Shown: piece after piece, positions 1 to 64,000 of the stretch
How the letters are laid out: each line of letters begins with the position of its first letter
Numbering within the stretch: the stretch's first letter is position 1
Assembly: GCA_002787235.1 (NCBI GenBank)
Contig: PCWG01000033.1
Location: 188,438-252,437 of the forward strand
Length of the DNA: 64,000 nucleotides
Direction: 5' to 3'
Origin: Nitrospinae bacterium CG11_big_fil_rev_8_21_14_0_20_45_15
Lineage (GTDB): Bacteria; Nitrospinota; Nitrospinia; Nitrospinales; VA-1
Notes under the pieces: model-generated
The model's database searches: none
Told to the model about the DNA's origin: nothing
The model's input: the letters and a program-made list of their open reading frames with translations, nothing else
Position numbers and translations under genes: made by a program

Positions 1-597
1 ACGGTCATTTAATTTCAGGGATTTGGTTAGAACTTCTTCCGCTTTGTCGTAATTTTTTGTCTTTCGATAAACCTCGGCGAGGTTGTCCAAAAAAAGAGTG
101 TTGCCGGGTGCCCAGTCCATGGCTTTTTCATAGTATTGAATGGCTAAATCGTATTTTTCTTCTTCTTTGTAGAGATTTGCAAGATTATTCAGTGCCTTGG
201 AGTCATCGTCATTGGGTAGAAGATCAATGGCTTTTTCCCAGTCGATTTTGGCCTGCTTTTTATCACCCAATGAATAATTGGCCATTCCAAGATTGATGTA
301 AGATTGCGTGTTTTTTGGGTCCAGTGCAATGGATTTCGTGAAAAGCTCTTTTGCCGGTTCGTATTGCTTCATTGCAAACTGGATGAGCCCTTTTTTTCGA
401 TAATATTTTGCTTCGCCGGGATTATTTGTGATGGCCAGATCAAATTCTTCAAGAGAGTTGTTCAAAAGAGAATTTTGGGCAAACTCCAGGCCCAGACGAT
501 AATGCGCTTCAGCCTGTTCCTTGTCGATCTGGGTTTCAGGGGAACCACAAGAGACCAGAAATAAAGCAACGATAAAAAATAGAGCTGAATGTTTCAT
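1..597 (-). CDS. TPR-repeat protein, C-terminus truncated by window edge
   Basis: Reverse strand is open from ATG at ~597 to the window edge; translation shows TPR-like motifs (e.g. NNLANLYKEEEKYDLAIQYYEKAMDWAPGN). Not in the ORF track, probably because it runs off the edge. Confidence 0.75.
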   Translation of the reverse strand, partial: MKHSALFFIVALFLVSCGSPETQIDKEQAEAHYRLGLEFAQNSLLNNSLEEFDLAITNNPGEAKYYRKKGLIQFAMKQYEPAKELFTKSIALDPKNTQSYINLGMANYSLGDKKQAKIDWEKAIDLLPNDDDSKALNNLANLYKEEEKYDLAIQYYEKAMDWAPGNTLFLDNLAEVYRKTKNYDKAEEVLTKSLKLNDR

Positions 598-626
598 GGG
601 GTAATCGGGCAAAGAGGAGAGGGTTG

Positions 627-661
627 AAAAAAAAAGAGGCCGACCAGAATGGCCGGCCTCT
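627..661 (-). terminator. Rho-independent terminator downstream of the 703-1260 gene
   Basis: Minus strand AGAGGCCGGCC-attct-GGTCGGCCTCT followed by a run of T. Confidence 0.85.
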
Positions 662-702
662 GAAAAGCTTGATCTAAAATCAAGAGGCACTAACTAAATA
701 GA

Positions 703-1260
703 TTAGTTGATACCGCTTGTAGAGTCGTGCAAGTCACCAATGAACTCCATGGCAAAACCGTTGGTTTGGCCGGATTGGTTCAAAACAACTACACCCCAAA
801 AAGACAGTTGGGTGATGTCACGTGTACCATTACCGGCACCAACAGACGTTGTTGCCGTGGGTGATGTTGCAACGGGGGTGAATCGCAAACTGCCTGCTCC
901 CGCGGTAGTCGCGGAATTAGTCACAGGAATACCCGCACTAGCAATGGTGTTACCCGTGCTAAAGATAAATACACGAGCGGTGGTTCCTGCATCAACCGTA
1001 AAACTGACCGATCCCAATGAAGAAGCATCGGTCCTGTTCAAAGCTTCAACAAATACACCGATCTGTGAAGCCATGTTGGACAGAGATGGATGGGATACAG
1101 CAACGAAGGAATAGTCGTCACTGCTATTCGCCTGGAAATACGGGGAAATGACCGCTGTACCTGCCAGTGGATTTACCGCATAGGCTTTCCCGGTACTTAA
1201 GCTAAAAAAAGTGACCAGAGCAAGGATCAGAAATCCTCGCGCCTTCAGCTTGGTTGTCAT
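703..1260 (-). CDS. Secreted hypothetical protein with signal peptide
   Basis: 185 aa; N-terminal signal peptide (LILALVTFFSLSTGKAYA); strong terminator downstream; Ser/Thr/Ala-rich mature region. Confidence 0.7.
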   Translation of the reverse strand: MTTKLKARGFLILALVTFFSLSTGKAYAVNPLAGTAVISPYFQANSSDDYSFVAVSHPSLSNMASQIGVFVEALNRTDASSLGSVSFTVDAGTTARVFIFSTGNTIASAGIPVTNSATTAGAGSLRFTPVATSPTATTSVGAGNGTRDITQLSFWGVVVLNQSGQTNGFAMEFIGDLHDSTSGIN

Positions 1261-1715
1261 TATAATATGTTCTCCTGATATATATATCTAAGATTGAATT
1301 AAGTTCAAATTTATTGCGCAATTGCAGTTAAAAAATAACACGAGGATTTTTTCCGGGAGCCTCCTTTCAGCAAAATAATTCACCATTATACATAAATAAC
1401 CTTCTACTAATTGTCGTCTATATTATTAAACTATTTCGATAAAGTCAAGATTCTTAGAATGAAAAGACTTGTAATTTATTAAAGAGTTTCCTGGAAGTAG
1501 TACTTCCCTTGATTCATTTTTTCCTTTAATATCAATAGCAAGTTCTTGATGATGCCTGCTTCTCGGTCAATGTGGTTAGAGCTGGCTTCATATGCTGATC
1601 GTCATAAAAGTATAAAAACTTTAATTAAATTTTAATAAAAATTTCATTTGAGCCGTTTGGGATCTTAGTTTTTTTACAGGCATTAAAAACAGTCTCATGG
1701 TATTGAAGATAGTAT

Positions 1716-2510
1716 ATGTCTATATATTTGAATAAAATGCTTTTGTGTGTGTTGCTGGTCTTGGCGGGAGGAGCCTTGCTGGGCGGATGCACCAGTGTCC
1801 CCGATTTAAAGAATATTCCTGAAGCTTCAATTGAGGACCGAAGTGCGGCCCGGAAGAAATTTCTTGAGGGGCGACAATTCTTATCTTTAAAGATGAACGC
1901 CCAGGCTCTTGAAAGTTTTGTGGATGCCATTAAGCTTGATCCTGGAAATGCTTCCTATTACTTTGCGGCAGGGGAAGTAAATTTTTCCGAAGAGCGATTG
2001 GATGCTGCAGAAAAATATTTCAAGTCGGCACTACAGATTGATCCTCGTTCCAAAGGAGTTTCTCGGGAATTGGGTCGCTTGTACATGTCGAAAGGGATGT
2101 GGGAAGAAGCGATCCAGAATTTTAAGCAGGATATAGAAATATCTGGAACCACATTTCCTCACGAGGTTTACAATTGGCTTGCACTGTCTTATTATCAATT
2201 AAATCAATTTGACAATGCTGAACGCGAATGGTTGACGGCCTTAAATTTCAGGGACAATGCAGATATTCGTTACAATTTGGGGATAGCCTATAAATCCAGG
2301 AAGGAATACGATAAGGCACTAAAGTCATTTGTTGCGGCTACACATTTGAATCCCGAATTTGTTTCTGCGCACTTCGAAGCGGCAATCCTTTTATACGGCA
2401 AACAACAATGGCTGGGTGCAAGGCAACATTTTGAGGAAGTGATTCGTTTCGATCCTAAAGGAGAGATGGCAATTCTTTCTCGCAAATACTTAAATGAGAT
2501 GGTGGAATAA
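1716..2510 (+). CDS. TPR-repeat lipoprotein (PilF/PilW-like)
   Basis: Lipobox LLGGC; consecutive TPR motifs; directly upstream of RodZ-like and PilT genes. Confidence 0.75.
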   Translation: MSIYLNKMLLCVLLVLAGGALLGGCTSVPDLKNIPEASIEDRSAARKKFLEGRQFLSLKMNAQALESFVDAIKLDPGNASYYFAAGEVNFSEERLDAAEKYFKSALQIDPRSKGVSRELGRLYMSKGMWEEAIQNFKQDIEISGTTFPHEVYNWLALSYYQLNQFDNAEREWLTALNFRDNADIRYNLGIAYKSRKEYDKALKSFVAATHLNPEFVSAHFEAAILLYGKQQWLGARQHFEEVIRFDPKGEMAILSRKYLNEMVE

Positions 2511-2518
2511 TAAAAAAC

Positions 2519-3433
2519 ATGCAGGGTAATTTTGGTAGTTTTTTGAAAAGCGAACGCGAATTACGAGGTATTTCACTTGAGGAAATTTCGGATGTTACTA
2601 AAGTTCGACTTACCTTTCTCAAGGCGATAGAGTCAAATAATTTTGATGAATTCCCAGGTGAAGTATTTATTAAAGGTTATATTCGCTCGTACGCCAAGGC
2701 GATTGGTTCTGACGTAGATGAAATTTTAAATATTTATGACGATGAAATAGGACGGGATAGAAAAGAAAAAATTCTGGAGCGTGAAAGGAAAGCACTTGAG
2801 GCTTCGGGAGGCGATGGAAGTTTCTTAAAATTTATTTTTTCTCTGGCATTGTTGATTGTGGTTGGCGCAGGCATTTATTTTGTATTTTATAATTTACCAG
2901 ATGACGGAAAAACAATGGTGGAGTCGGCAGGCGAATCGGAAAAACTATCGGTTGAAAAGTTTCCAGATTCCCCCCTTCCTCGGCCAGTGGATTCTTCCGT
3001 GAAGGTGGAAGCCGAGTCTTTGGGTGAGACAATACCTTCCTCTGAAAACAGTGGTGAAGTTGAGGCAGTCAAGCAGACGCAGTCAACGCCGACGGCTCAA
3101 GCGCAATTGATCGTAAATGATGAACAGGTAAAGAAAGAGGCGACAGCACCGGAAGAGCCTGTACTACCGTCTGCGGTGAATACTTTACATTCTCTGCAAA
3201 TTCAGGCAAAAGAAAAGTCGTGGTTTAGTTTGACTATAGACAATCTCACAGAAGAAAAATTTATTTTGCCGGCAGGAGCTCAAAAACAGTTCTCTGCAAG
3301 TGATAATTTTAAAATAACAATCGGTAACAGGGCGGGGGTGGTGTTGGTTTTAAATGGAAAGCCTGTGGTTATCCCCCCTGGGAAGCAGAATGTGGTTCGC
3401 GATTTTATTATTAACCCGAAAAAAGAAGAGTGA
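2519..3433 (+). CDS. RodZ-like protein: helix-turn-helix, TM, C-terminal DUF4115-like domain
   Basis: N-terminal HTH (GSFLKSERELRGISLEEISDVTKVRLTFLKAIESNNFDEFPGEVFIKGYIRSYAKAIG), TM segment, C-terminal WFSLTIDN...I.IGNRAGV..VLNGK pattern. Confidence 0.85.
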   Translation: MQGNFGSFLKSERELRGISLEEISDVTKVRLTFLKAIESNNFDEFPGEVFIKGYIRSYAKAIGSDVDEILNIYDDEIGRDRKEKILERERKALEASGGDGSFLKFIFSLALLIVVGAGIYFVFYNLPDDGKTMVESAGESEKLSVEKFPDSPLPRPVDSSVKVEAESLGETIPSSENSGEVEAVKQTQSTPTAQAQLIVNDEQVKKEATAPEEPVLPSAVNTLHSLQIQAKEKSWFSLTIDNLTEEKFILPAGAQKQFSASDNFKITIGNRAGVVLVLNGKPVVIPPGKQNVVRDFIINPKKEE

Positions 3434-3436
3434 TCC

Positions 3437-4510
3437 GTGGCGAAAATAGACGCTTTTTTTAAATTAATGAACGATGAAGGTGCCTCCGACTTGCACTTGG
3501 TCGCGGGTTCTCAGCCGGTACTTCGTATTCATGGAGACATGGAGCGAGTCAAGTTCAAGGTAATGGAAAATGACGAGCTCAAGGCCATGTTGTATGAAAT
3601 CGCACCTGAAAATAAAATCAAGGTATTTGAGGAAACCGGCGATGTGGATTTCGCTTATGAAATCCCAAATCTGGCGCGTTACCGAGCTAACTTTTTTCAG
3701 CAGAAATGGGGAGTTGGAGCTGTATTTCGAGAAATCCCCAGCACGATTCTGACTTCGGAGCAATTGGGATTGCCTTCAGTAATCACGAAACTGTCCATGT
3801 TGCATAAAGGGATGGTGCTGGTTACAGGTCCTACGGGTAGTGGTAAGTCCACTACGCTTGCGGCAATGATGGACTATGTCAATCGAAATAAAAAGAGTCA
3901 TATTATTACTGTAGAAGATCCGGTTGAGTTTGTGCATAAAAGTCAGGGCTGTGTGGTGAACCATCGCGAAGTAGGTATTCACACCAAAAGCTTCAAAGCG
4001 GCTTTGAAGGGTGCTTTGCGTGAGGACCCGGATATTATTCTGGTGGGTGAAATGCGCGATCTGGAGACCATCGAGCTGGCACTTGAAGCGGCTTCTACAG
4101 GCCATCTGGTTTTTGGAACCTTGCATACACAAAGTGCGGCGAAGACGGTAGACCGTGTTATTGACGTCTTCCCAGCGCATCAACAATCGCAGATTCGGAC
4201 CACGCTGTCTGAATCGTTGAAAGGTGTCATCGCTCAGAATTTGTTCAAACGCATCGATAAAAAAGGTAGAATGGCAGTGCTGGAAGTTCTGGTGGTTACA
4301 CCTGCAGTTTCTAACTTGATTCGAGAGGGTAAAACTTTTCAGATTCCATCTGCAATTCAAACAGGTAAAAAGTTCGGCATGCAGTCGTTGGACGATGCCA
4401 TTTTGGTGGCATTGAACGAGGGCAAAATCTCTCCAGAAGATGCCTATGACAAGTCTATCGTGAAAGAGCGGTTTGTTTCTTTCTTGAAGAAAGCACCAGA
4501 CTTCATTTAA
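3437..4510 (+). CDS. pilT: Type IV pilus retraction ATPase PilT
   Basis: Walker A GPTGSGKS, Asp/His boxes, ILVGEMRDLETIELALEAASTGHLVFGTLHT. Confidence 0.93.
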   Translation: MAKIDAFFKLMNDEGASDLHLVAGSQPVLRIHGDMERVKFKVMENDELKAMLYEIAPENKIKVFEETGDVDFAYEIPNLARYRANFFQQKWGVGAVFREIPSTILTSEQLGLPSVITKLSMLHKGMVLVTGPTGSGKSTTLAAMMDYVNRNKKSHIITVEDPVEFVHKSQGCVVNHREVGIHTKSFKAALKGALREDPDIILVGEMRDLETIELALEAASTGHLVFGTLHTQSAAKTVDRVIDVFPAHQQSQIRTTLSESLKGVIAQNLFKRIDKKGRMAVLEVLVVTPAVSNLIREGKTFQIPSAIQTGKKFGMQSLDDAILVALNEGKISPEDAYDKSIVKERFVSFLKKAPDFI

Positions 4511-4523
4511 ATAGCGAGGGTCT

Positions 4524-5687
4524 ATGAAAAAAGCAGAAATTGACCACATATTGACCACCATGCTGGAAGCGTTTGGAAATATTTCTGATCTGAACGTTAC
4601 GGTAGGCAAGCCTTTTCAGGTTGAGTCCTCTGGCCAATTAACGGGTGTGCCGATTGATCCACCCCTCCCTGAGATCACTCCGTTTCAAGCAGAAATCTTT
4701 GCAATGAATTTGATCAACTCCGATCGCAGATTGACGGAGATTCTGTTGCGTCAGGGATCATGCGATTGCTCTTATTTCCTTGTTGGGAAGGCACGTTTCA
4801 GGGTCAATATATTTTCTCAACGTGGATATTACACTACGGTTTTGAGAAAGTTGGAAACCCGTATCCCCTCTATCGAAGAATTGAAACTTCCGCCGCAATT
4901 TGGTAAGGCCGCAGAAGAAAAGAATGGCTTGATTTTAGTCACAGGTTCTACCGGGTCGGGTAAATCCACCACCCTTGCGGCTTTGCTGAACAAAATGAAT
5001 CTGGAAAAATCGATGCACATCATTACCCTCGAAGATCCTGTTGAGTTTGTTCATCCCCATAAAAAAGCAACCTTCAATCAACGTGAGTTGGGCAACGATT
5101 ACGATGCTTTTTCCAGCGGACTCCGGGCGGCTCTCCGGCAAGCACCCAAAGTCATCCTCGTGGGCGAAATGCGCGACAGAGAAACCGTTGAAATCGGTAT
5201 GAGTGCCGCCGAGACAGGCCATCTGGTATTGAGTACTTTGCATACCGTAGATGCGGGGCAAACCATCAACCGCATCGTTGGTATGTTTTCTCAAGAGGAA
5301 GAACAACAAATACGAATCCGGCTTGCAGACACCATTCGCTGGATTGTCTGTCAGCGTCTGTTGCCAAAAGTCGGAGGAGGTCGTGTCGCACTTTTAGAAA
5401 TCATGACTTCCAATATGCGTGTGAAAGATACGATCATCAACGGTGAAAGCGAAGGCAAGACATATTATGACATCATCACCAACGGCGATGCCTATGGCAT
5501 GTGGACCTTCGATCAGCACATTCTTAAACTGCTGGGTGAAGGTTTGATCACTGAAGATACGGCGATGGCCTACGCTTCTCGAAAAGCGATCGTTGGAAGA
5601 GGCATTGATCAGATCAAGGCCAAGCGGGGTGAAAAGACAACGGATATTGAAGGGCTGGGTATGGATGAAGACTACGGGGACGCCTGA
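4524..5687 (+). CDS. Second PilT/PilU-type ATPase
   Basis: Walker A GSTGSGKS, HIITLEDPVEFVH, VILVGEMRDRETVEIGMSAAETGHLVLSTLHT. Confidence 0.9.
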   Translation: MKKAEIDHILTTMLEAFGNISDLNVTVGKPFQVESSGQLTGVPIDPPLPEITPFQAEIFAMNLINSDRRLTEILLRQGSCDCSYFLVGKARFRVNIFSQRGYYTTVLRKLETRIPSIEELKLPPQFGKAAEEKNGLILVTGSTGSGKSTTLAALLNKMNLEKSMHIITLEDPVEFVHPHKKATFNQRELGNDYDAFSSGLRAALRQAPKVILVGEMRDRETVEIGMSAAETGHLVLSTLHTVDAGQTINRIVGMFSQEEEQQIRIRLADTIRWIVCQRLLPKVGGGRVALLEIMTSNMRVKDTIINGESEGKTYYDIITNGDAYGMWTFDQHILKLLGEGLITEDTAMAYASRKAIVGRGIDQIKAKRGEKTTDIEGLGMDEDYGDA

Positions 5688-5760
5688 GAATTTGTGCTTT
5701 GTAGAAACGTCTGAACCAAAACGGGCTTAAAAAAAGACTCAATCTAAAGGTCATATCATT

Positions 5761-12961: not shown

Positions 12962-13978
12962 TCAAATCACCGCCATATGATTGGCAATCCAAAGATAAAT
13001 TGGGATACCAAACGCGATATTAAAAGGAAATGTGATTCCCAAGGATGCGGTGAGATATAAAGATGGATTGGCTTCGGGCAAGGACACTCGCATGGCCGCT
13101 GGTGCTGCAATGTAAGAAGCACTGGCCGCCATAACACCCATTAATGTCATCCCTCCGATTGAGAGCCCAGTCACCTGTCCAACCATAACACCGAGAAAAC
13201 CGCTGATAAGTGGAATCAGAATCCCAAAGAAAACGAGAAACACTCCTACATGTTTGATTTCCATCAGACGCCTTCCAGCAACAAGTCCCATTTCAAGCAT
13301 AAAAATACACAAAATGCCTTTGAAAGGTGCCCCAAAAAATGCCTCAGTGACATGGATTCCATCTTCCCCGGAAATAAAACCGATAACCAGCGATCCGGCC
13401 AGGATCAACGAACCTGTATTGGTTAAAGATTCATGCAGTGATGTCTTTAGCCAGGAATAGTCGTTAACATCAGATACCGTTGCATTTTCCCTTCGATCTT
13501 TCAGTTGAAGCGCGATTCTCGCCAGTAAAATTCCAGTTATGACACCAGTAGGCTCAAAAATAGCGAGAAACGCTGAAGTGTATCCTTCTGATGCAATATG
13601 TAGCTGGGAAAGAAATTGTGTTGCTGAGACAAATGTCACCGCACTTACAGAACCGTAGTGTCCGGCCACAGCCGCGGCATCATGAATATTAAACCCGCCC
13701 CACTTCCTGAGGATGTAATAACCGGCTATGGGAATTGATGTACCAAGAAAAAGGCATCCCATGACCGGCAAATAAATGGATAACAATCCGACGTGCTGAA
13801 TTTCCGCTCCACCTTTAAGACCAATCGCCGCCAACAAATAAAGGGTCAATCCAATATAAAGTGCATCTGGAATTTTCAGATCGGATTTAATAAGGGTGGC
13901 GAAAATTCCAAGAACAAAAAACAACGGCATGGGTGCTGTCAGGTTATATACAATGGCTTCAATCAGACTATGGTCCAT
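12962..13978 (-). CDS. Sodium-dependent bicarbonate transporter SbtA family
   Basis: Polytopic membrane protein resembling SbtA/DUF897 (LKSDLKIPDALYIGLTLYLLAAIGLKGGAEI; AAAVAGHYGSVSAVTF). Confidence 0.85.
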   Translation of the reverse strand: MDHSLIEAIVYNLTAPMPLFFVLGIFATLIKSDLKIPDALYIGLTLYLLAAIGLKGGAEIQHVGLLSIYLPVMGCLFLGTSIPIAGYYILRKWGGFNIHDAAAVAGHYGSVSAVTFVSATQFLSQLHIASEGYTSAFLAIFEPTGVITGILLARIALQLKDRRENATVSDVNDYSWLKTSLHESLTNTGSLILAGSLVIGFISGEDGIHVTEAFFGAPFKGILCIFMLEMGLVAGRRLMEIKHVGVFLVFFGILIPLISGFLGVMVGQVTGLSIGGMTLMGVMAASASYIAAPAAMRVSLPEANPSLYLTASLGITFPFNIAFGIPIYLWIANHMAVI

Positions 13979-26192: not shown

Positions 26193-26264
26193 TAGGCACG
26201 GGCGGTTTCGAACCGCCGACCCCTTGCATGTCAAGCAAGTACTCTACCCCTGAGCTACGCGCCT
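26193..26264 (-). tRNA. tRNA-Val (anticodon GAC)
   Basis: Minus strand AGGCGCGTAGCTCAGGGGTAGAGTACTTGCTTGACATGCAAGGGGTCGGCGGTTCGAAACCGCCCGTGCCTA folds as a cloverleaf with anticodon loop TTGACAT. Confidence 0.95.
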
Positions 26265-57730: not shown

Positions 57731-57955
57731 CCTGCCCTAACCGCCGCTTCCTCAGCGAAACTCCTCTACAAATCAGAGCAAGTATCAACTTTGCTCTGCA
57801 ACCCAAAATGAAAGCACGGTAAAAATGGGATGCTGTCCTCCATCCACTGCGAACGACAGCAAAAAATGAAACTACCGGGTGTCTAGAAAACCTGGGGCGT
57901 ATCACTCTTTAACACTAAAAAACATTAAATTTGCTACCCTTACCGCTACCCAAAG

Positions 57956-57990
57956 TAAAAACGGCTTACAGAGATACTCTGTAAACCGTT
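57956..57990 (-). terminator. Terminator hairpin downstream of the tRNA-Thr remnant
   Basis: Minus strand AACGGTTTACAGAG-TAT-CTCTGTAAGCCGTT followed by T residues. Confidence 0.8.
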
Positions 57991-58001
57991 ATTTTATATG
58001 A

Positions 58002-58044
58002 AGCCAACGCGCGGAATTGAACCGCGGACCTACTGATTACGAAT
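58002..58044 (-). pseudogene. 3' half of tRNA-Thr(CGT): probable attachment-site remnant of an integrated island
   Basis: Minus strand ATTCGTAATCAGTAGGTCCGCGGTTCAATTCCGCGCGTTGGCT: anticodon loop/3' stem, complete T-arm (CGCGG-TTCAATT-CCGCG) and acceptor 3' strand; no D-arm or 5' acceptor strand upstream. Confidence 0.82.
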
Positions 58045-58233
58045 TATAAATTGACGTTTTTCGGAAGTTGTTGTATTCAGGCCGTTTTCCCTTATCTGCT
58101 TTATTTTCAGGTAGTTTCAGGCGTTCCATAGTTTCCACTAATTCCATAAATTCTGCCCTTTTGGATAATTTCTATCATAATTTTATCATAGTCCGACCTA
58201 CTGATTCTGTAGTAGCAGGTCGAATTTATTAAT

Positions 58234-59511
58234 TCAATTTAAAAAAATTGTAATAATATTTTTTCCATTACCCTTGCTAGTATTAACAGCTTGATCAGCA
58301 TTATTAAAAGCAGCAACAATATTTTTCACATCTAAACATTCAGCAATTCCTATACTCAGAGTAATAATAAGTTTTTCCGGTTTGCCTCTCTCAGTGTATA
58401 TAATGGGGTTTTGTCTCAAATCATCCGCAACCCTTTGCATCATACCCTTTGCTTCATCAAGGGAAAAGTCTTGACATAAGACAGAAAATTCATCGCCACC
58501 AAATCTATAAACCTTATCCCGTGGTCGTATTTTTTTCCTTATAACACTCGCAGTACGCTTAATGGCTTCATCACCAAAAGAATGACTATAGTTATCATTT
58601 ATATTTTTAAAATTATCGATGTCGATAAAAATACATGCGATAGGAACTCCGACCGGTCTGGTTTTATTTTCAATGTCCTGCATATCTTGAAGGTAAAGAC
58701 TCTTATTTCCAGTTTGGGTCAGTGGGTCCACAAAACCTAATTGATTTATAGCAGGTTTAGAAAGGAGTTCGCGAACTGGTCCTGGCCGGCAATCACATGG
58801 CAATAAGGTGCATACAACGCAAAAACCCGGGTAAGCTCTCCAAAGCGATTCACTTGGGAATTCAGTTATTTTTTTACTTTTTGGATCAATATAAAGGTTT
58901 GTCACCAGAGCAAACCACCATGCGAAAAAATCTGCCAATTCATTGTCAAAGTTTGAAGGATATAAATGATAAAACCTAATCGTTTCTGCCACTTCAGAAA
59001 GTTCTTCAATCAGCCGCGTATGCATATAATGCAAGCTATCAATATCTGAAGGTTCACTTGATTTGTTTCCCCAAGAATTTTCGTATATAGCTCTAAACAT
59101 AACTTGATAATCATCAACTCTCTTTTTGCTGGCGGGATATTGATCTTTAAAAAAAATATCAAGTTTACCTTGGTCTAAATTGGATTTTTTCCCAGAAATG
59201 CATTTGCATGGCTTAGAACAACAATATGGGCAAACACTTGGGAATTTCGTAAAAATCAACCTCTCTAAATCCGCCTCATTCCGTTTTACTTGCTTTAGGA
59301 GCGCAACTGCCCAAGCAAAAATCTTAGGCAAAAACTTCTTTGCTTCATCAACATCATTCTTCTTAAATAGAAACTTACCAAATGCTCCACATACCTCTGT
59401 TAAATGGACAAATATTTCAGAGGCAGTTTTATTATAATTTTGCGAATTGCCATATATTTCATAAAGCATTTTAACCCACTCATTGAGATTTTGATCCTTG
59501 TGATAGGGCAT
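58234..59511 (-). CDS. Duplicated MazG-like/Cys-motif repeats fused to a GGDEF domain
   Basis: C-terminal FIDIDNFKNINDNYSHSFGDEAI...YRFGGDEFSVL (intact GGDEF). N-terminal repeats each end in a Cys cluster: CPYCCSKPCKC and CVVCTLLPCDC; the second repeat has EELSE...ELAD as in MazG-like NTP pyrophosphohydrolases. Confidence 0.85.
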   Translation of the reverse strand: MPYHKDQNLNEWVKMLYEIYGNSQNYNKTASEIFVHLTEVCGAFGKFLFKKNDVDEAKKFLPKIFAWAVALLKQVKRNEADLERLIFTKFPSVCPYCCSKPCKCISGKKSNLDQGKLDIFFKDQYPASKKRVDDYQVMFRAIYENSWGNKSSEPSDIDSLHYMHTRLIEELSEVAETIRFYHLYPSNFDNELADFFAWWFALVTNLYIDPKSKKITEFPSESLWRAYPGFCVVCTLLPCDCRPGPVRELLSKPAINQLGFVDPLTQTGNKSLYLQDMQDIENKTRPVGVPIACIFIDIDNFKNINDNYSHSFGDEAIKRTASVIRKKIRPRDKVYRFGGDEFSVLCQDFSLDEAKGMMQRVADDLRQNPIIYTERGKPEKLIITLSIGIAECLDVKNIVAAFNNADQAVNTSKGNGKNIITIFLN

Positions 59512-59534
59512 ATTATAAACCTATGAAAGAATTT

Positions 59535-62500
59535 TCAATTTGGTAGTGTAATTTTGTAAAAGGAAGTAGGCCCAACCCCTGCTGTAAACTTGATTGGATT
59601 AAAGTCTTTCGGCTCAACATAGTAGCATTGTGCTACTTTCAATGAGGCACTTAAAACTGAACATGCAACCGCTTGTATTTTTGATCCTGTTAATCCTAAT
59701 TCAAAATTAAAACCTCTGTCCATATACCATTCTTTGTAACATCTAAATAAAAATTTAATCGCTTCATTTATATCGTTGCTATCGATTTCGCTTATTTCTG
59801 CACTGGTAAATTCTCCTGCCGCAACATTAGCAGCTATTTTTGCTAACTTCCCTCTAGGGGTTTTGCTAATTGGGGTCCCAATTTCAAATCTGTCGTATTC
59901 TTTACTTGATATCAAACCAAATAACCTTTTATGTTTTGGAGATGAAAATGCACACAATACTTTCCTTCTTGATTCGTCTGCTTCTGATGGAAGAAGATTG
60001 ATTAAAGAGTATGGTTGCTCTTCCCCTGTCAAGATATTTTCCATTTCTTCCAGAATTTTGAAATGGTCATCTGATTTTCCAGCATCTAATAATTTTTCCA
60101 AGTGCGCATCCAAGGGATAATGTTGCTCGGCTTTTGTGTGACAAATCCATACTTGTCGCTTCGAAATCAGACTTTCTCTAATTGTCCCAAAAATTACAGG
60201 TTTTGCTAAACCAGTAATATCCACCATTCTTCTCTGCACAGAAGAGTCCAATTCCTTATCCCAATTATTAGAGTAATCAATTACCCTGTAATCGATTTTT
60301 TCCTTGTCCAATAAATCGAGCATTTCCTTAGATTTTCCCTCATGCTTATATTTTATAGCCAAAACTTCCTTAGGTTTTGCTATCTCTAATATCACTTTTA
60401 ATGACTCTAAAGTACGTGACTCAAATCCCAGCCCAAGAATCAATTGGTCTATTGGCTTAAAGTTATCTTGCTTTGGTTCAATTGTTTCTATTAAAGGTAA
60501 CTTCAGCTTTAAAAATTCTTGGTTTTCTTCTGAAAAGTAAATTTGGCTTTTGTTTTCTTCGGCGGGTTTTTCTAATTCGTCAAAAAGCGTACGCTGCCTA
60601 ATTGTATTTAAAGCGTCTGATTTTTTTTCAGAAACCACAATAGATTGAATTTCGATTTCCTCTTCACTGTCATCTAAATCATCCTCATCTGAGGTTTCTT
60701 CCTTCACCAAATTTCGAAGGAGTATCTCTTTCCCCTCCTCTGAGCTTTTCATGTTCAACCAAAGTTCCAACTCTTCCCCTGACAATTCGAATCGATCACT
60801 TTCTGCTAGTCCTATATATTTAACCAATCCATAAATTTTTCTGTACGTCAGTTTAAACTGCCTAATTGGATCAGTATCTCTTACTTTTGCCCTAGGCCCG
60901 GAAGTACCCCCAGCAAACACAAAAAGACCAGCATCAATTAATTCTCGTAGTTTTCTGTACTGCTTTTCCTTGTCTCCCGAAGTTATACGAACATATAAAG
61001 AGAGATATTGACGCAATCTTTTTCTTTCTACTCGTTTTTTTATAATGTCCTGATAAGATTGATACATTAATTCATACGAAGCTTCAGCGAAGGAATCTGA
61101 ATAATCCTTTAAAAACCCCTCTTGCCTGAAGTGCTTTAACCCAAATAATCTTTTAGCTGAAAACTCTTGATATGATTCCGATTGTATTTGCTTAGAAATA
61201 GGACTTTCATTTTTATAATTCCTCAAAAAGGATTCATAAAGGCTAATTACATCTCCTATATCTCCGACACACACACGAGATAAAGCAGTAATTCCGTAAT
61301 ACACTCTTTTTCTCTCACTTGAGGTACTTGATGATGAAACAATCGTATTCGCAATGTTGGCGAGACTAGTATCACCAAGTAATTCCGAGGGTGAAATTGG
61401 ACCTTCCCCCCCTGACAATTTATCTTTTGGATGGGCAGGCCAGATCTCTGCACGCTTTTTTAAAATGTCACCTACAAAATATTTGCCACCATTTTTTTTA
61501 CTCTTTATTTTCCTGTAAACTTCGGCACCAAGATCAAACACCTTATAGTCACGATCTTCACCAGGCTGCTCCAACTTGCCTGGTACATCAAAAGCAAGCT
61601 CTATAGTTTGAATTTCTGATGATATTTTGAATGCACAGTTTTGATCATGAAAAAGAAGATGAGATAATATGGGTTCAACATTTTCTTTCATCAAATATCG
61701 GGTTGAAACATCATCCAACAAAAATAGAATATATGATTCGCCCCACAATGATGAGCACTCTAAAATTATTCTTGCTAGATGAGGAAATGCTTGGGCAGAT
61801 TCAATAGTAAAATCTAAGGGGATCCCATTTCTATTTAGTTCAATTTCAATTTCTAAAAGAACATATCGCAAGTCACTTAATGTTATAACGCTTTTTAATC
61901 TTGCCTTAAAATTTTCATCAAGAGGTATATAGTCAGATACTGCTTTTGAAATTTTAGAATGAGCTAAATTGCTTACTTGGTCCCGGCTGATTTCTTTTAA
62001 ATGCGAAAGAGCATCTACAGCACCTTTAGCATAACCAATGTACAATCGAGCTATTTGTATATCAATCGTGTTTGTATCTTTAGATTTTTTATCTTTAGAT
62101 AAAGTACCTTTTATTTCTTGAGCGGCCATATATAAGCCAACAAAATTATCCTCTTTTAATCGCTTAATAGTTTCTTCCGCATTTTCTTCGAGCCTCCTAA
62201 CTGCAGCTCTTGCGTGGAATTGCATTGCTTTCAAAAGCATGGTTTTCCCACAACCTCGCATGCCAGTGATAATTAGATGTCCATGACTGGAAACACTTTT
62301 TAACCAGGCATCATCAGGGTCTACTAAAAGCTTTGGAACGAACCATGGAGCTAAAGTTTGTGCATTATAGGAGTCGCCAAAGCTACTAATTTTTAATGGA
62401 TTTTTCCAAGGCGAAGAAGTAAAAAAAACCCCTTCTTTAATTTGATTAATTATATCTTCACTGTTTGGGGTACGTTGATTCTCAATATTTGGTAGTAAAT

Positions 62501-63293
62501 TCTGGATTATGCCTTGGAAAACTCCTGCCAAGCGGAAATCAGAGTCACTCGTTTTATCTGGGTCAATTAGTAATTTTTCTGTCATTACTTTTAAATGATC
62601 TGCTATCCAATGAATATCTCCAAGTCTTTTATCTTTTATGCTTTTACTTTCGTCCGAAACAGAACCCAAATCAATTGCTATTGCTCTCAAAGTTGGGTCC
62701 AATTCACCAGCCCGCCGTGAGTCATCTTTTAACGATTTAATTAATATATTTCCACCATGGAGATCGTTGTGGTTTACTCTTTTATTTTCAAGCTCCTCCC
62801 GTATTCGAAATAAATCAATAGCAATTTGTGCCGAAGAAAGTGCATTAAGTTGTAATTTCCCTTCAAAATATTCTTCTAAAGGATTTCCATCAATATAATC
62901 TAAAACAGCTACTTGGCACATGATGGAAGATTTCCCAAAATCTAAAGAAATTGGATCTGCAATGAGATCCTTTATCCCAACCACATATTCCGTGTCACGT
63001 GCAACCTCCTTATGTTTAACGCACTCAGCTTTAAAATCTTTTTTAAAAAATTTATAAATTTCAAATGGTGCTATTTTTAAAACACATTCAGTTTTTAAAA
63101 AACCATACTCTGCAATATACGCTGATGAATAAAATCCTCTTGCAAGAGGCTTAATAATTTTGTACCCATTTATCTCTTCCGGATACTCTTTTAAAGGAAA
63201 GTCATATGGCTTGCTACATATGGGACATAAATCATTTAATGATTTATCAGAGTAATCTTCACGAGGACAGATAAAGCATGAATATCTAGCCAA
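59535..63293 (-). CDS. Zinc ribbon + protein kinase-like + ORC-CDC6/AAA-like ATPase + winged helix + C-terminal Rossmann-type (possible CARF-like) repeats
   Basis: Zn ribbon CFICPRED...LCPICSKPYD; kinase LARGFYSSAY, CVLKIAP, VNHNDLHGGNILI, AIDLGSV; Walker A ITGMRGCGKTMLL; Walker B YILFLLDDV; C-terminal LILGLGFESRT and LGLTGSKIQAVACSVLSASLKVAQCYYVEP. Track start 63338; TTG 63293 follows GAGGAGG with 6-nt spacing and fits better. Confidence 0.8.
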   Translation of the reverse strand: MARYSCFICPREDYSDKSLNDLCPICSKPYDFPLKEYPEEINGYKIIKPLARGFYSSAYIAEYGFLKTECVLKIAPFEIYKFFKKDFKAECVKHKEVARDTEYVVGIKDLIADPISLDFGKSSIMCQVAVLDYIDGNPLEEYFEGKLQLNALSSAQIAIDLFRIREELENKRVNHNDLHGGNILIKSLKDDSRRAGELDPTLRAIAIDLGSVSDESKSIKDKRLGDIHWIADHLKVMTEKLLIDPDKTSDSDFRLAGVFQGIIQNLLPNIENQRTPNSEDIINQIKEGVFFTSSPWKNPLKISSFGDSYNAQTLAPWFVPKLLVDPDDAWLKSVSSHGHLIITGMRGCGKTMLLKAMQFHARAAVRRLEENAEETIKRLKEDNFVGLYMAAQEIKGTLSKDKKSKDTNTIDIQIARLYIGYAKGAVDALSHLKEISRDQVSNLAHSKISKAVSDYIPLDENFKARLKSVITLSDLRYVLLEIEIELNRNGIPLDFTIESAQAFPHLARIILECSSLWGESYILFLLDDVSTRYLMKENVEPILSHLLFHDQNCAFKISSEIQTIELAFDVPGKLEQPGEDRDYKVFDLGAEVYRKIKSKKNGGKYFVGDILKKRAEIWPAHPKDKLSGGEGPISPSELLGDTSLANIANTIVSSSSTSSERKRVYYGITALSRVCVGDIGDVISLYESFLRNYKNESPISKQIQSESYQEFSAKRLFGLKHFRQEGFLKDYSDSFAEASYELMYQSYQDIIKKRVERKRLRQYLSLYVRITSGDKEKQYRKLRELIDAGLFVFAGGTSGPRAKVRDTDPIRQFKLTYRKIYGLVKYIGLAESDRFELSGEELELWLNMKSSEEGKEILLRNLVKEETSDEDDLDDSEEEIEIQSIVVSEKKSDALNTIRQRTLFDELEKPAEENKSQIYFSEENQEFLKLKLPLIETIEPKQDNFKPIDQLILGLGFESRTLESLKVILEIAKPKEVLAIKYKHEGKSKEMLDLLDKEKIDYRVIDYSNNWDKELDSSVQRRMVDITGLAKPVIFGTIRESLISKRQVWICHTKAEQHYPLDAHLEKLLDAGKSDDHFKILEEMENILTGEEQPYSLINLLPSEADESRRKVLCAFSSPKHKRLFGLISSKEYDRFEIGTPISKTPRGKLAKIAANVAAGEFTSAEISEIDSNDINEAIKFLFRCYKEWYMDRGFNFELGLTGSKIQAVACSVLSASLKVAQCYYVEPKDFNPIKFTAGVGPTSFYKITLPN

Positions 63294-64000
63294 TTTGTAC
63301 CTCCTCAAAACGAGCTTTAAATATACTCTTTGGGCCAATTCGAAAGTTTAGATTCAAATCTTCCTGAATGTCTCTTGAATTTTTATTAGTAATTCTGTAG
63401 GTAGCCAAACATTCTCCCTTCTTAAAATAAGAATCCGGTCGACTGCGCAATATTACCCCGCATGGATCTGGGAAAACACAACTGTTGGTTTTAGAGTGAT
63501 TTTGAAACTTTACCAAAGTGTTCCTTAATCCCTGCAAATTCAAATTCAAGAACCCATCTGAATTGGCATACACTTTGTAGGCATGCTCTCTGTCTAGATT
63601 ATTAGCTATTTCCTCAAATGCCGAGAAACTTGCCCCTTGAGCTGTCAGGTTTTTTGCAAAAATGTCAGCCAAGGTTTTTTCACTAGGCTGTTCAACCCTG
63701 TTTATGTTTAATGTTGACTTGGCCATTAAGAAACATTGCCTATTATGTTCGACAAGTTTGTTGTCAGCTTGCCCAGTAAATATTTTGTGCAAACCAACAA
63801 GGGCCTCTTTTCTGCCAATGTATTCTTGATATGGCAAGTTACCATCCGTTAAAAAACAGGTGGCTTTTAGACCAAGCTCTTTTGCAACCTTGCAAAATTC
63901 AATTGAATTTTTTTTAGCTGCTTTCCAATTCGTACCAAAATTTCCAAAATCAGACACACGGACATCCAAACCTACTCTTGTTAATCCCACTGCGATTTTT
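63286..64000 (-). CDS. Thymidine/pyrimidine-nucleoside phosphorylase-like protein, N-terminus beyond window
   Basis: KIAVGLTRVGLDVRVSDFGNF..., ATCFLTDGNLPYQEYIGRKEALVGLHKIFTG, C-terminal PDPCGVILRSRPDSYFKKGECLATYRI resembling the PYNP C-terminal domain. Frame is open to the window edge. Confidence 0.65.
   Translation of the reverse strand, partial: KIAVGLTRVGLDVRVSDFGNFGTNWKAAKKNSIEFCKVAKELGLKATCFLTDGNLPYQEYIGRKEALVGLHKIFTGQADNKLVEHNRQCFLMAKSTLNINRVEQPSEKTLADIFAKNLTAQGASFSAFEEIANNLDREHAYKVYANSDGFLNLNLQGLRNTLVKFQNHSKTNSCVFPDPCGVILRSRPDSYFKKGECLATYRITNKNSRDIQEDLNLNFRIGPKSIFKARFEEVQIG

What the first reader, a model, noticed from the sequence alone, without database searches (positions are those of the whole stretch)
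58234..64000. Candidate undescribed nucleotide-signalling conflict system: phosphorylase-like / kinase-ATPase-Rossmann / MazG-GGDEF operon
Seen in sequence: three tightly packed minus-strand genes (8-bp overlap, then a 23-bp gap) at the start of a tRNA-integrated region. They encode (1) a thymidine-phosphorylase-like enzyme, (2) a ~1250-aa Zn-ribbon/kinase/P-loop ATPase/Rossmann protein, and (3) a MazG-like-GGDEF fusion. Established: GGDEF/cyclase-type domains make nucleotide messengers (c-di-GMP; cOA by Cas10 in type III CRISPR), CARF-type Rossmann domains sense such messengers, and MazG domains hydrolyse NTPs. Inference: the fusion makes or edits a nucleotide signal, the large protein senses it and couples it to phosphorylation/ATPase activity, and the phosphorylase alters nucleoside pools during phage infection. 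No close named system comes to mind, though related modules may already be catalogued.
Basis: partly seen in the sequence, partly recalled or inferred. Interest (0 to 1): 0.93.

Follow-up and report, generated by a model that had tools for sequence, protein, structure and literature searches.

The report
Restriction-linked CARF kinase operon, mobile island
A recently acquired bacterial gene cluster places a known but uncharacterised sensor-kinase protein of antiviral defence beside a DNA-methylating enzyme, an altered nucleoside enzyme and a c-di-GMP-making enzyme, and could show what such sensors detect outside CRISPR.

Summary
The window end cuts the first gene, and a fourth operon gene, a cytosine-5 DNA methyltransferase, lies just outside.

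The large protein is not undescribed. It matches PADLOC model PDLC01925 (CARF6--CARF_STK_AAA) over its full length at 1392 bits, and Makarova 2014 describes this architecture. I found no characterised function for it.

The three-gene set does not recur in five related loci. The phosphorylase-like gene occurs in one other, and the MazG-like/GGDEF fusion in none. What recurs is a DNA methyltransferase in all five other loci, fused and split. This points to a restriction-modification-linked signalling module with variable nucleotide-metabolism accessories.

The phosphorylase-like protein keeps the base-binding residues of pyrimidine phosphorylases but lacks most phosphate-binding ones. The GGDEF domain has every residue expected of a c-di-GMP synthase.

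That the CARF half senses this cyclase's product is inference only. Verdict: a new variant of a known, uncharacterised kind of defence gene; moderate interest.

The parts
57983..58045 (-). 3' part of a tRNA-Thr(CGT) gene, taken as the attachment-site remnant at the island edge
   Evidence: 62 bp at 92% to the intact tRNA-Thr on G000:C7, 48 bp at 98% to a fragment next to a tyrosine integrase on G000:C14; same 46-47-bp sequence flanks a 9.4-kb integrase-bearing insertion in G047
58234..59511 (-). MazG-like (two copies, first degenerate, each followed by CxxCx4CxC) fused to a GGDEF diguanylate cyclase domain, 425 aa
   Evidence: GGDEF E 9e-31; MazG E 0.0043 for the second copy alone, below cut-off; internal duplication 0 of 2000 shuffles, 41 of 2000 with Cys masked
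58984..59007 (-). EELSEVAE, first half of the MazG metal-binding signature (ExxD follows at residues 191-194)
58486..58527 (-). GGDEF catalytic loop with RPRD inhibitory site five residues upstream
   Evidence: aligned with PleD (RAID...GGEEF); positions
59535..63293 (-). Zn-ribbon / kinase / ORC-CDC6-like P-loop ATPase / tandem Rossmann (CARF6) protein, 1252 aa, TTG start
   Evidence: PADLOC PDLC01925 CARF6--CARF_STK_AAA, 1392.6 bits, profile 2-1185 of 1187; PF24389 ORC-CDC6-like E 1.8e-25
63216..63278 (-). Zn ribbon, CxxC...CxxC
   Evidence: residues 6-26; conserved (one Cys to His) in the two close homologues only
62748..62771 (-). kinase catalytic motif HNDLHGGN (HxDxHxxN)
   Evidence: HxDxHxxN conserved in six of six homologues
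62241..62264 (-). Walker A GMRGCGKT, with arginine inside the P-loop
   Evidence: RGCGK conserved in six of six homologues; arginine in P-loop named as family feature in PMC4012209
59538..60437 (-). C-terminal half: two tandem Rossmann-like domains, GFE motif in the first, TGSK (CARF) motif in the second
   Evidence: AF2 model pLDDT 58; Foldseek: Cam1 CARF domain probability 1.00, Csm6 0.97; PADLOC CARF6 match
63286..64000 (-). pyrimidine-nucleoside-phosphorylase-like protein, C-terminal part; complete gene is 403 aa and ends about 64497, beyond the window. A C5 DNA methyltransferase (346 aa) follows upstream at about 64506-65546
   Evidence: TIGR02644 E 1.9e-30 but 106 of 409 cut-off bits; methyltransferase PF00145 E 6e-65; gene positions

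Best explanation
What it is: a mobile, restriction-modification-linked signalling operon of the STK-ORC/AAA-CARF6 kind, sitting at the edge of a tRNA-Thr island. Gene order is C5 DNA methyltransferase, phosphorylase-like protein, CARF6-STK-AAA protein, MazG-like/GGDEF protein. How it most likely works (inferred): the methyltransferase marks self DNA. The ORC/Cdc6-like ATPase engages foreign or damaged DNA. The CARF half reads a nucleotide ligand that reports infection. Together they switch the kinase domain on, and phosphorylation of host or partner proteins arrests growth or activates an effector. The phosphorylase-like protein probably binds a pyrimidine nucleoside or nucleotide and tunes or removes the ligand, rather than doing ordinary phosphorolysis. 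The MazG-GGDEF protein is a locus-specific accessory that makes c-di-GMP and may also hydrolyse NTPs. Identity and methyltransferase linkage are well supported (about 0.9). The functional chain is inference (about 0.3).
For: Full-length family match; architecture described in Makarova 2014. A DNA methyltransferase lies beside the module in all six loci examined: window (Dcm), Christiangramia (Vsr+Dcm), Loktanella plasmid (Dcm+NaeI 0.9 kb downstream), unnamed G1273 (N6/N4 MTase directly upstream), Bradyrhizobium plasmid (Mrr nuclease and N6/N4 MTase, then kinase, ORC-AAA and CARF6 as three separate adjacent genes), G003 (N6/N4 MTase upstream). Kinase and ATPase catalytic motifs are conserved in fused and split forms alike, so the three domains travel as a functional unit. 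CARF fold supported by Foldseek. Only two PF00145 methyltransferases exist in the whole genome, so adjacency is not trivially likely. Island edge and low GC show joint acquisition.
Against: Only six loci, three of them close, and G003 is cut by its contig end. In the window no restriction nuclease is seen beside the methyltransferase, but the contig ends 1.7 kb upstream of it. The HxDxHxxN motif resembles ABC1/APH-type kinases as well as protein kinases (ABC1 weak match), so the kinase substrate could be a small molecule. The CARF model is of low confidence. No functional data.
Confidence: 0.5

Rival explanations
1. One reading: a self-contained nucleotide-signalling circuit in which the GGDEF protein makes the messenger, the CARF half senses it, and the phosphorylase shifts nucleoside pools.
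For: GGDEF domain is canonical: Mg-binding DID, guanine-contacting N and D, GGDEF loop and RPRD inhibitory site all align with PleD. It is encoded 23 bp downstream on the same strand, with the same low GC (0.356 against 0.354), inside the island. CARF domains sense cyclic nucleotides in type III CRISPR (PMC12669027 and others).
Against: The fusion is absent from all five other loci, the other 76 genomes of its phylum, and plasmids, so the sensor must work without it there. No CARF is known to me to bind c-di-GMP. The genome has other GGDEF candidates (12 first-look candidates), so c-di-GMP would be a poor private signal.
Confidence: 0.2
2. The MazG-GGDEF gene is a passenger: an ordinary diguanylate cyclase caught at the end of the island, with no role in the defence module.
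For: Found only here. Many cyclases in the genome. Last gene of the run, next to the attachment remnant.
Against: 23-bp gap, same strand and same composition as the module. Its N-terminal half is unlike any other protein found, and a MazG nucleotide hydrolase fits a nucleotide-centred operon.
Confidence: 0.3
3. The cassette acts on nucleotide pools directly: the kinase domain is a small-molecule kinase and, with the phosphorylase-like and MazG-like proteins, it depletes or traps pyrimidine nucleotides that phage needs.
For: HxDxHxxN motif typical of ABC1/APH-like kinases. Pyrimidine-base site R147/S162/K166 conserved. A thymidylate synthase gene thyX lies beside the split version in Bradyrhizobium.
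Against: Best matches of the kinase region among solved structures, by sequence, are protein Ser/Thr kinases, including PknG. The phosphorylase has lost most phosphate-binding residues. thyX is one case.
Confidence: 0.12

Closest known systems
CARF6--CARF_STK_AAA (PADLOC PDLC01925); Zn-ribbon/STK/AAA+/CARF family of Makarova et al. 2014 (PMC4012209)
   Same: Same domain order, full-length profile match, arginine within the P-loop, Zn ribbon, TGSK-type CARF motif
   Different: That paper gives no partner genes for this family in the passages I could read. Here it is part of an operon with a C5 methyltransferase, phosphorylase-like and MazG-GGDEF genes. The 2020 CARF classification was not readable, so its context notes are unchecked
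MzaABCDE and MORC/Z1/AIPR restriction-modification loci (PMC2292703, PMC9523054)
   Same: The nearest relative (Christiangramia, L003) carries Vsr, Dcm, the phosphorylase-like gene and CARF6-STK-AAA directly upstream of MzaBCDE homologues
   Different: None of MzaB-E is in the readable stretch around the window's operon
MADS (methylation-associated defence, mad1-8; own knowledge)
   Same: A DNA methyltransferase with a Ser/Thr kinase and an ATPase; weak PADLOC matches to mad6 (L004) and mad8 (window, E 0.004)
   Different: No other mad genes; single fused kinase-ATPase-CARF protein; matches far weaker than to PDLC01925
Type III CRISPR cyclic-oligoadenylate effectors and CBASS
   Same: A CARF-type sensor and a nucleotide-messenger enzyme in one operon
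   Different: Cyclase is a canonical diguanylate cyclase, not Cas10 or a CD-NTase; output is a kinase, not a nuclease or pore; no cas genes beside it
Pyrimidine-nucleoside phosphorylase (TIGR02644)
   Same: Fold-level homologue over about 350 residues; base-binding R, S and K kept
   Different: 106 of 409 cut-off bits; phosphate-binding K81, S110 and T120 replaced by I, G and G in both homologues

Membership tests
CARF6-STK-AAA (PDLC01925) | full-length profile match | tested here: met
   1392.6 bits, profile 2-1185 of 1187
CARF6-STK-AAA (PDLC01925) | intact kinase catalytic residues and P-loop with internal arginine | tested here: met
   K, HxDxHxxN, D of the DFG position, RGCGK and DD conserved across homologues
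CARF6-STK-AAA (PDLC01925) | CARF domain binds a cyclic nucleotide | not testable with these tools
   fold supported only: Foldseek Cam1 1.00, Csm6 0.97, from a model with pLDDT 58
CARF6-STK-AAA (PDLC01925) | wHTH domain named in Makarova 2014 | not tested
   no Pfam match seen; region between AAA and CARF not modelled
Type III CRISPR cOA effector | cas10/cas genes in the locus | tested here: not met
   neighbours identified include none; rest of genome not searched
CBASS | CD-NTase in the operon | tested here: not met
   only nucleotide cyclase is a GGDEF domain; no PADLOC CBASS match
Diguanylate cyclase | GGDEF loop, Mg and guanine contacts, above curated cut-off | tested here: met
   TIGR00254 115.7 bits against a cut-off of 37.4; residues aligned to PleD
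MazG nucleotide pyrophosphohydrolase | profile score above cut-off | tested here: not met
   17.7 bits against a cut-off of 22 for the isolated domain
MazG nucleotide pyrophosphohydrolase | EExxE(12-28)ExxD motif | tested here: met
   E169, E170, E173 and E191, D194, 17 residues between
Pyrimidine-nucleoside phosphorylase | base-binding Arg, Ser, Lys | tested here: met
   R147, S162, K166 align with R168, S183, K187 of 1brw and are invariant
Pyrimidine-nucleoside phosphorylase | phosphate-binding Lys, Ser, Thr | tested here: not met
   K81 to I62, S110 to G91, T120 to G99; catalytic-role assignment from own knowledge
MADS | mad1-8 gene set | tested here: not met
   no strong mad matches
MzaABCDE | mzaB-E genes | tested here: inconclusive
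   present in L003, none beside the window's operon, whose contig ends 1.7 kb past the methyltransferase

The most novel reading that the evidence does not exclude
A restriction-modification-linked defence operon in which a CARF-type sensor is switched by a messenger from a GGDEF enzyme (c-di-GMP or a variant) instead of Cas10-made cyclic oligoadenylate, edited by a MazG domain fused to the cyclase and by a re-tooled pyrimidine-phosphorylase fold, with a kinase as the output.
Probability: 0.13. Interest if true: 0.85.

Novelty: new variant of a known kind. Interest (0 to 1): 0.48.

Why it matters
What CARF domains sense outside type III CRISPR is open. This locus supplies a CARF-kinase protein with a candidate messenger enzyme, a candidate messenger editor and a constant DNA methyltransferase partner in one operon, so the ligand question becomes a simple binding and deletion experiment. 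The methyltransferase linkage, seen in fused and split forms across several bacterial groups, gives the catalogued but uncharacterised CARF6-STK-AAA family a concrete functional context.

Tried and rejected
Hoped to show three-gene co-occurrence: rejected, none of the five other loci has it. Scans of viral contigs with the large protein, its homologues, the phosphorylase alignment and a degenerate LLDDVSTRYL pattern gave no relative; phage records none. MazG-GGDEF scans of viral contigs returned only generic GGDEF proteins. AlphaFold of MazG-GGDEF without an alignment failed (pLDDT 38), so no fold evidence for MazG. ORFs on the opposite strand inside the operon were ignored as frame echoes. 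Intact tRNA-Val at 26193 considered as the integration site and rejected: it lies 32 kb away amid core genes. RNA folding of the 188 bp between attachment remnant and operon is unremarkable (z -0.6), and promoter/terminator hits are at chance level. A genome-wide cas10 search was not possible within caps.
Full report
Observation. The GGDEF-fusion gene is 58234-59511. The large gene runs from a TTG at 63293 to 59535 (1252 aa, behind a GAGGAGG ribosome-binding site), and the phosphorylase-like gene ends at 63286. The 8-bp overlap and 23-bp gap are exact. The window cuts the phosphorylase-like gene; the contig (G000:C17, which ends 3.2 kb past the window and 1.7 kb past the methyltransferase) shows it to be 403 aa, preceded within 9 bp by a fourth same-strand gene, a C5 DNA methyltransferase of 346 aa. 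A divergent gene of unknown family follows, and then the contig ends.

Island. No intact tRNA is near, but 57983-58045 is the 3' part of a tRNA-Thr(CGT). It matches the intact gene on contig C7 and, at 98% over 48 bp, a fragment beside a tyrosine integrase on contig C14. In the congener G047 the intact tRNA-Thr and a second copy of the same fragment bracket a 9.4-kb insertion with an integrase, a C5 methyltransferase and a SIR2-like protein (the SIR2 and methyltransferase labels there are from reading the sequence). GC falls from 0.437 to 0.357 across the fragment, and third-position GC from about 0.45-0.53 in nearby core genes to 0.26-0.33 in the operon. The neighbouring MtfA gene is followed by quite different genes in both congeners.

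Large protein. PADLOC gives a full-length match, PDLC01925 CARF6--CARF_STK_AAA, 1392.6 bits. Makarova et al. [quoted passage not shown] Zn ribbon, kinase motifs, RGCGKT P-loop and CARF match that description here. Pfam names the ATPase ORC-CDC6-like. A model of the C-terminal half from two sequences (pLDDT 58) shows two tandem alternating alpha/beta domains. Among its Foldseek matches the Cam1 CARF domain has probability 1.00 and Csm6 0.97; lower-probability matches with long alignments are not meaningful. So the protein belongs to a known, catalogued and, as far as I could read, experimentally untouched family.

Relatives and neighbourhoods. Full-length relatives: Christiangramia crocea (41-43%) and a Loktanella salsilacus plasmid (38-40%). 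Catalytic motifs are conserved throughout: HxDxHxxN, RGCGK[TS], DD, and GFE and GSK where the CARF half is present. Every one of these six loci (window included) has a DNA methyltransferase beside the module: C5 enzymes in window, Christiangramia (with Vsr) and Loktanella (with NaeI); N6/N4 enzymes in G1273, Bradyrhizobium (with an Mrr-type nuclease) and G003. The Christiangramia locus continues into MzaB, C, D and E homologues, known defence genes (PMC9523054, PMC2292703). The family is rare: at E 1e-12 it is in 1 of 77 genomes of the window's phylum and in 1-2 of about 400 in each of four overlapping draws around Christiangramia, each of which included the Christiangramia genome itself; in 2 of 72,556 plasmids, one of them distant; and in no phage record.

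Partners. The phosphorylase-like gene occurs directly upstream of the large gene in the window and in Christiangramia (43% identity) and in no other locus. It is homologous to pyrimidine-nucleoside phosphorylases but scores 106 of 409 cut-off bits. The alignment with structure 1brw keeps R168, S183 and K187, which bind the base, and replaces K81, S110 and T120, which bind phosphate, by I, G and G; both homologues agree. Residue roles are from my knowledge of the family. Ordinary phosphorolysis is therefore doubtful; binding or another chemistry on a pyrimidine compound is more likely. The MazG-GGDEF protein was found only here. Its N-terminal half is an internal duplication (0 of 2000 shuffles, 41 of 2000 with cysteines masked), the second copy carrying the MazG signature at a sub-threshold score. 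Its GGDEF domain has all residues expected for c-di-GMP synthesis and product inhibition.

Mechanism. Shown: composition, order, joint acquisition, family membership of the large protein, recurrent methyltransferase linkage, intact kinase and ATPase motifs. Inferred: that methylation status or foreign DNA gates the ATPase, that a nucleotide ligand gates the CARF half, and that phosphorylation is the output. The GGDEF-to-CARF signal is possible but cannot be general for the family, since the other loci lack the cyclase.

Verdict. The claim of an undescribed three-gene system is not supported. It is a new variant, with unusual accessories, of the uncharacterised CARF6-STK-AAA kind, now tied to restriction-modification.

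Noticed in passing
L063 (G047:C1:350000-366000), 3878-3952 and 13344-13389: tRNA-Thr(CGT) and a direct repeat of its 3' part flank a 9.4-kb insertion with tyrosine integrase, C5 methyltransferase and SIR2-like gene: this tRNA looks like a defence-island hotspot in the genus.
   Followed up: partly
L060 (G000:C14:9000-14936), 179-5752: Type I restriction genes (HsdS- and HsdM-like by reading), an ATPase and a tyrosine integrase end at another copy of the tRNA-Thr fragment in the window's own genome.
   Followed up: partly
L003, 1948-16482 (Christiangramia crocea): Vsr, Dcm, phosphorylase-like and CARF6-STK-AAA genes run directly into MzaBCDE homologues: a composite defence operon.
   Followed up: partly
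L066, 4649-12834 (Bradyrhizobium quebecense plasmid): Split version: Mrr-type nuclease, N6/N4 methyltransferase, kinase, ORC-ATPase and CARF6 as adjacent genes, followed by thyX (thymidylate synthase).
   Followed up: partly
L004, 8616-11023 (Loktanella plasmid): Upstream of CARF6-STK-AAA: a DPPW-containing protein without a Pfam match and a PUA-like/metallophosphoesterase fusion.
   Followed up: no
window 57800-58010: Short sequences dispersed in many copies in the genus (81-95% identity), next to the attachment remnant, ending in a strong hairpin followed by T.
   Followed up: no
L002:9223-10053 (about window 65785-66615, outside the window): Divergent 276-aa gene beyond the methyltransferase with no Pfam or PHROGs match.
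   Followed up: no
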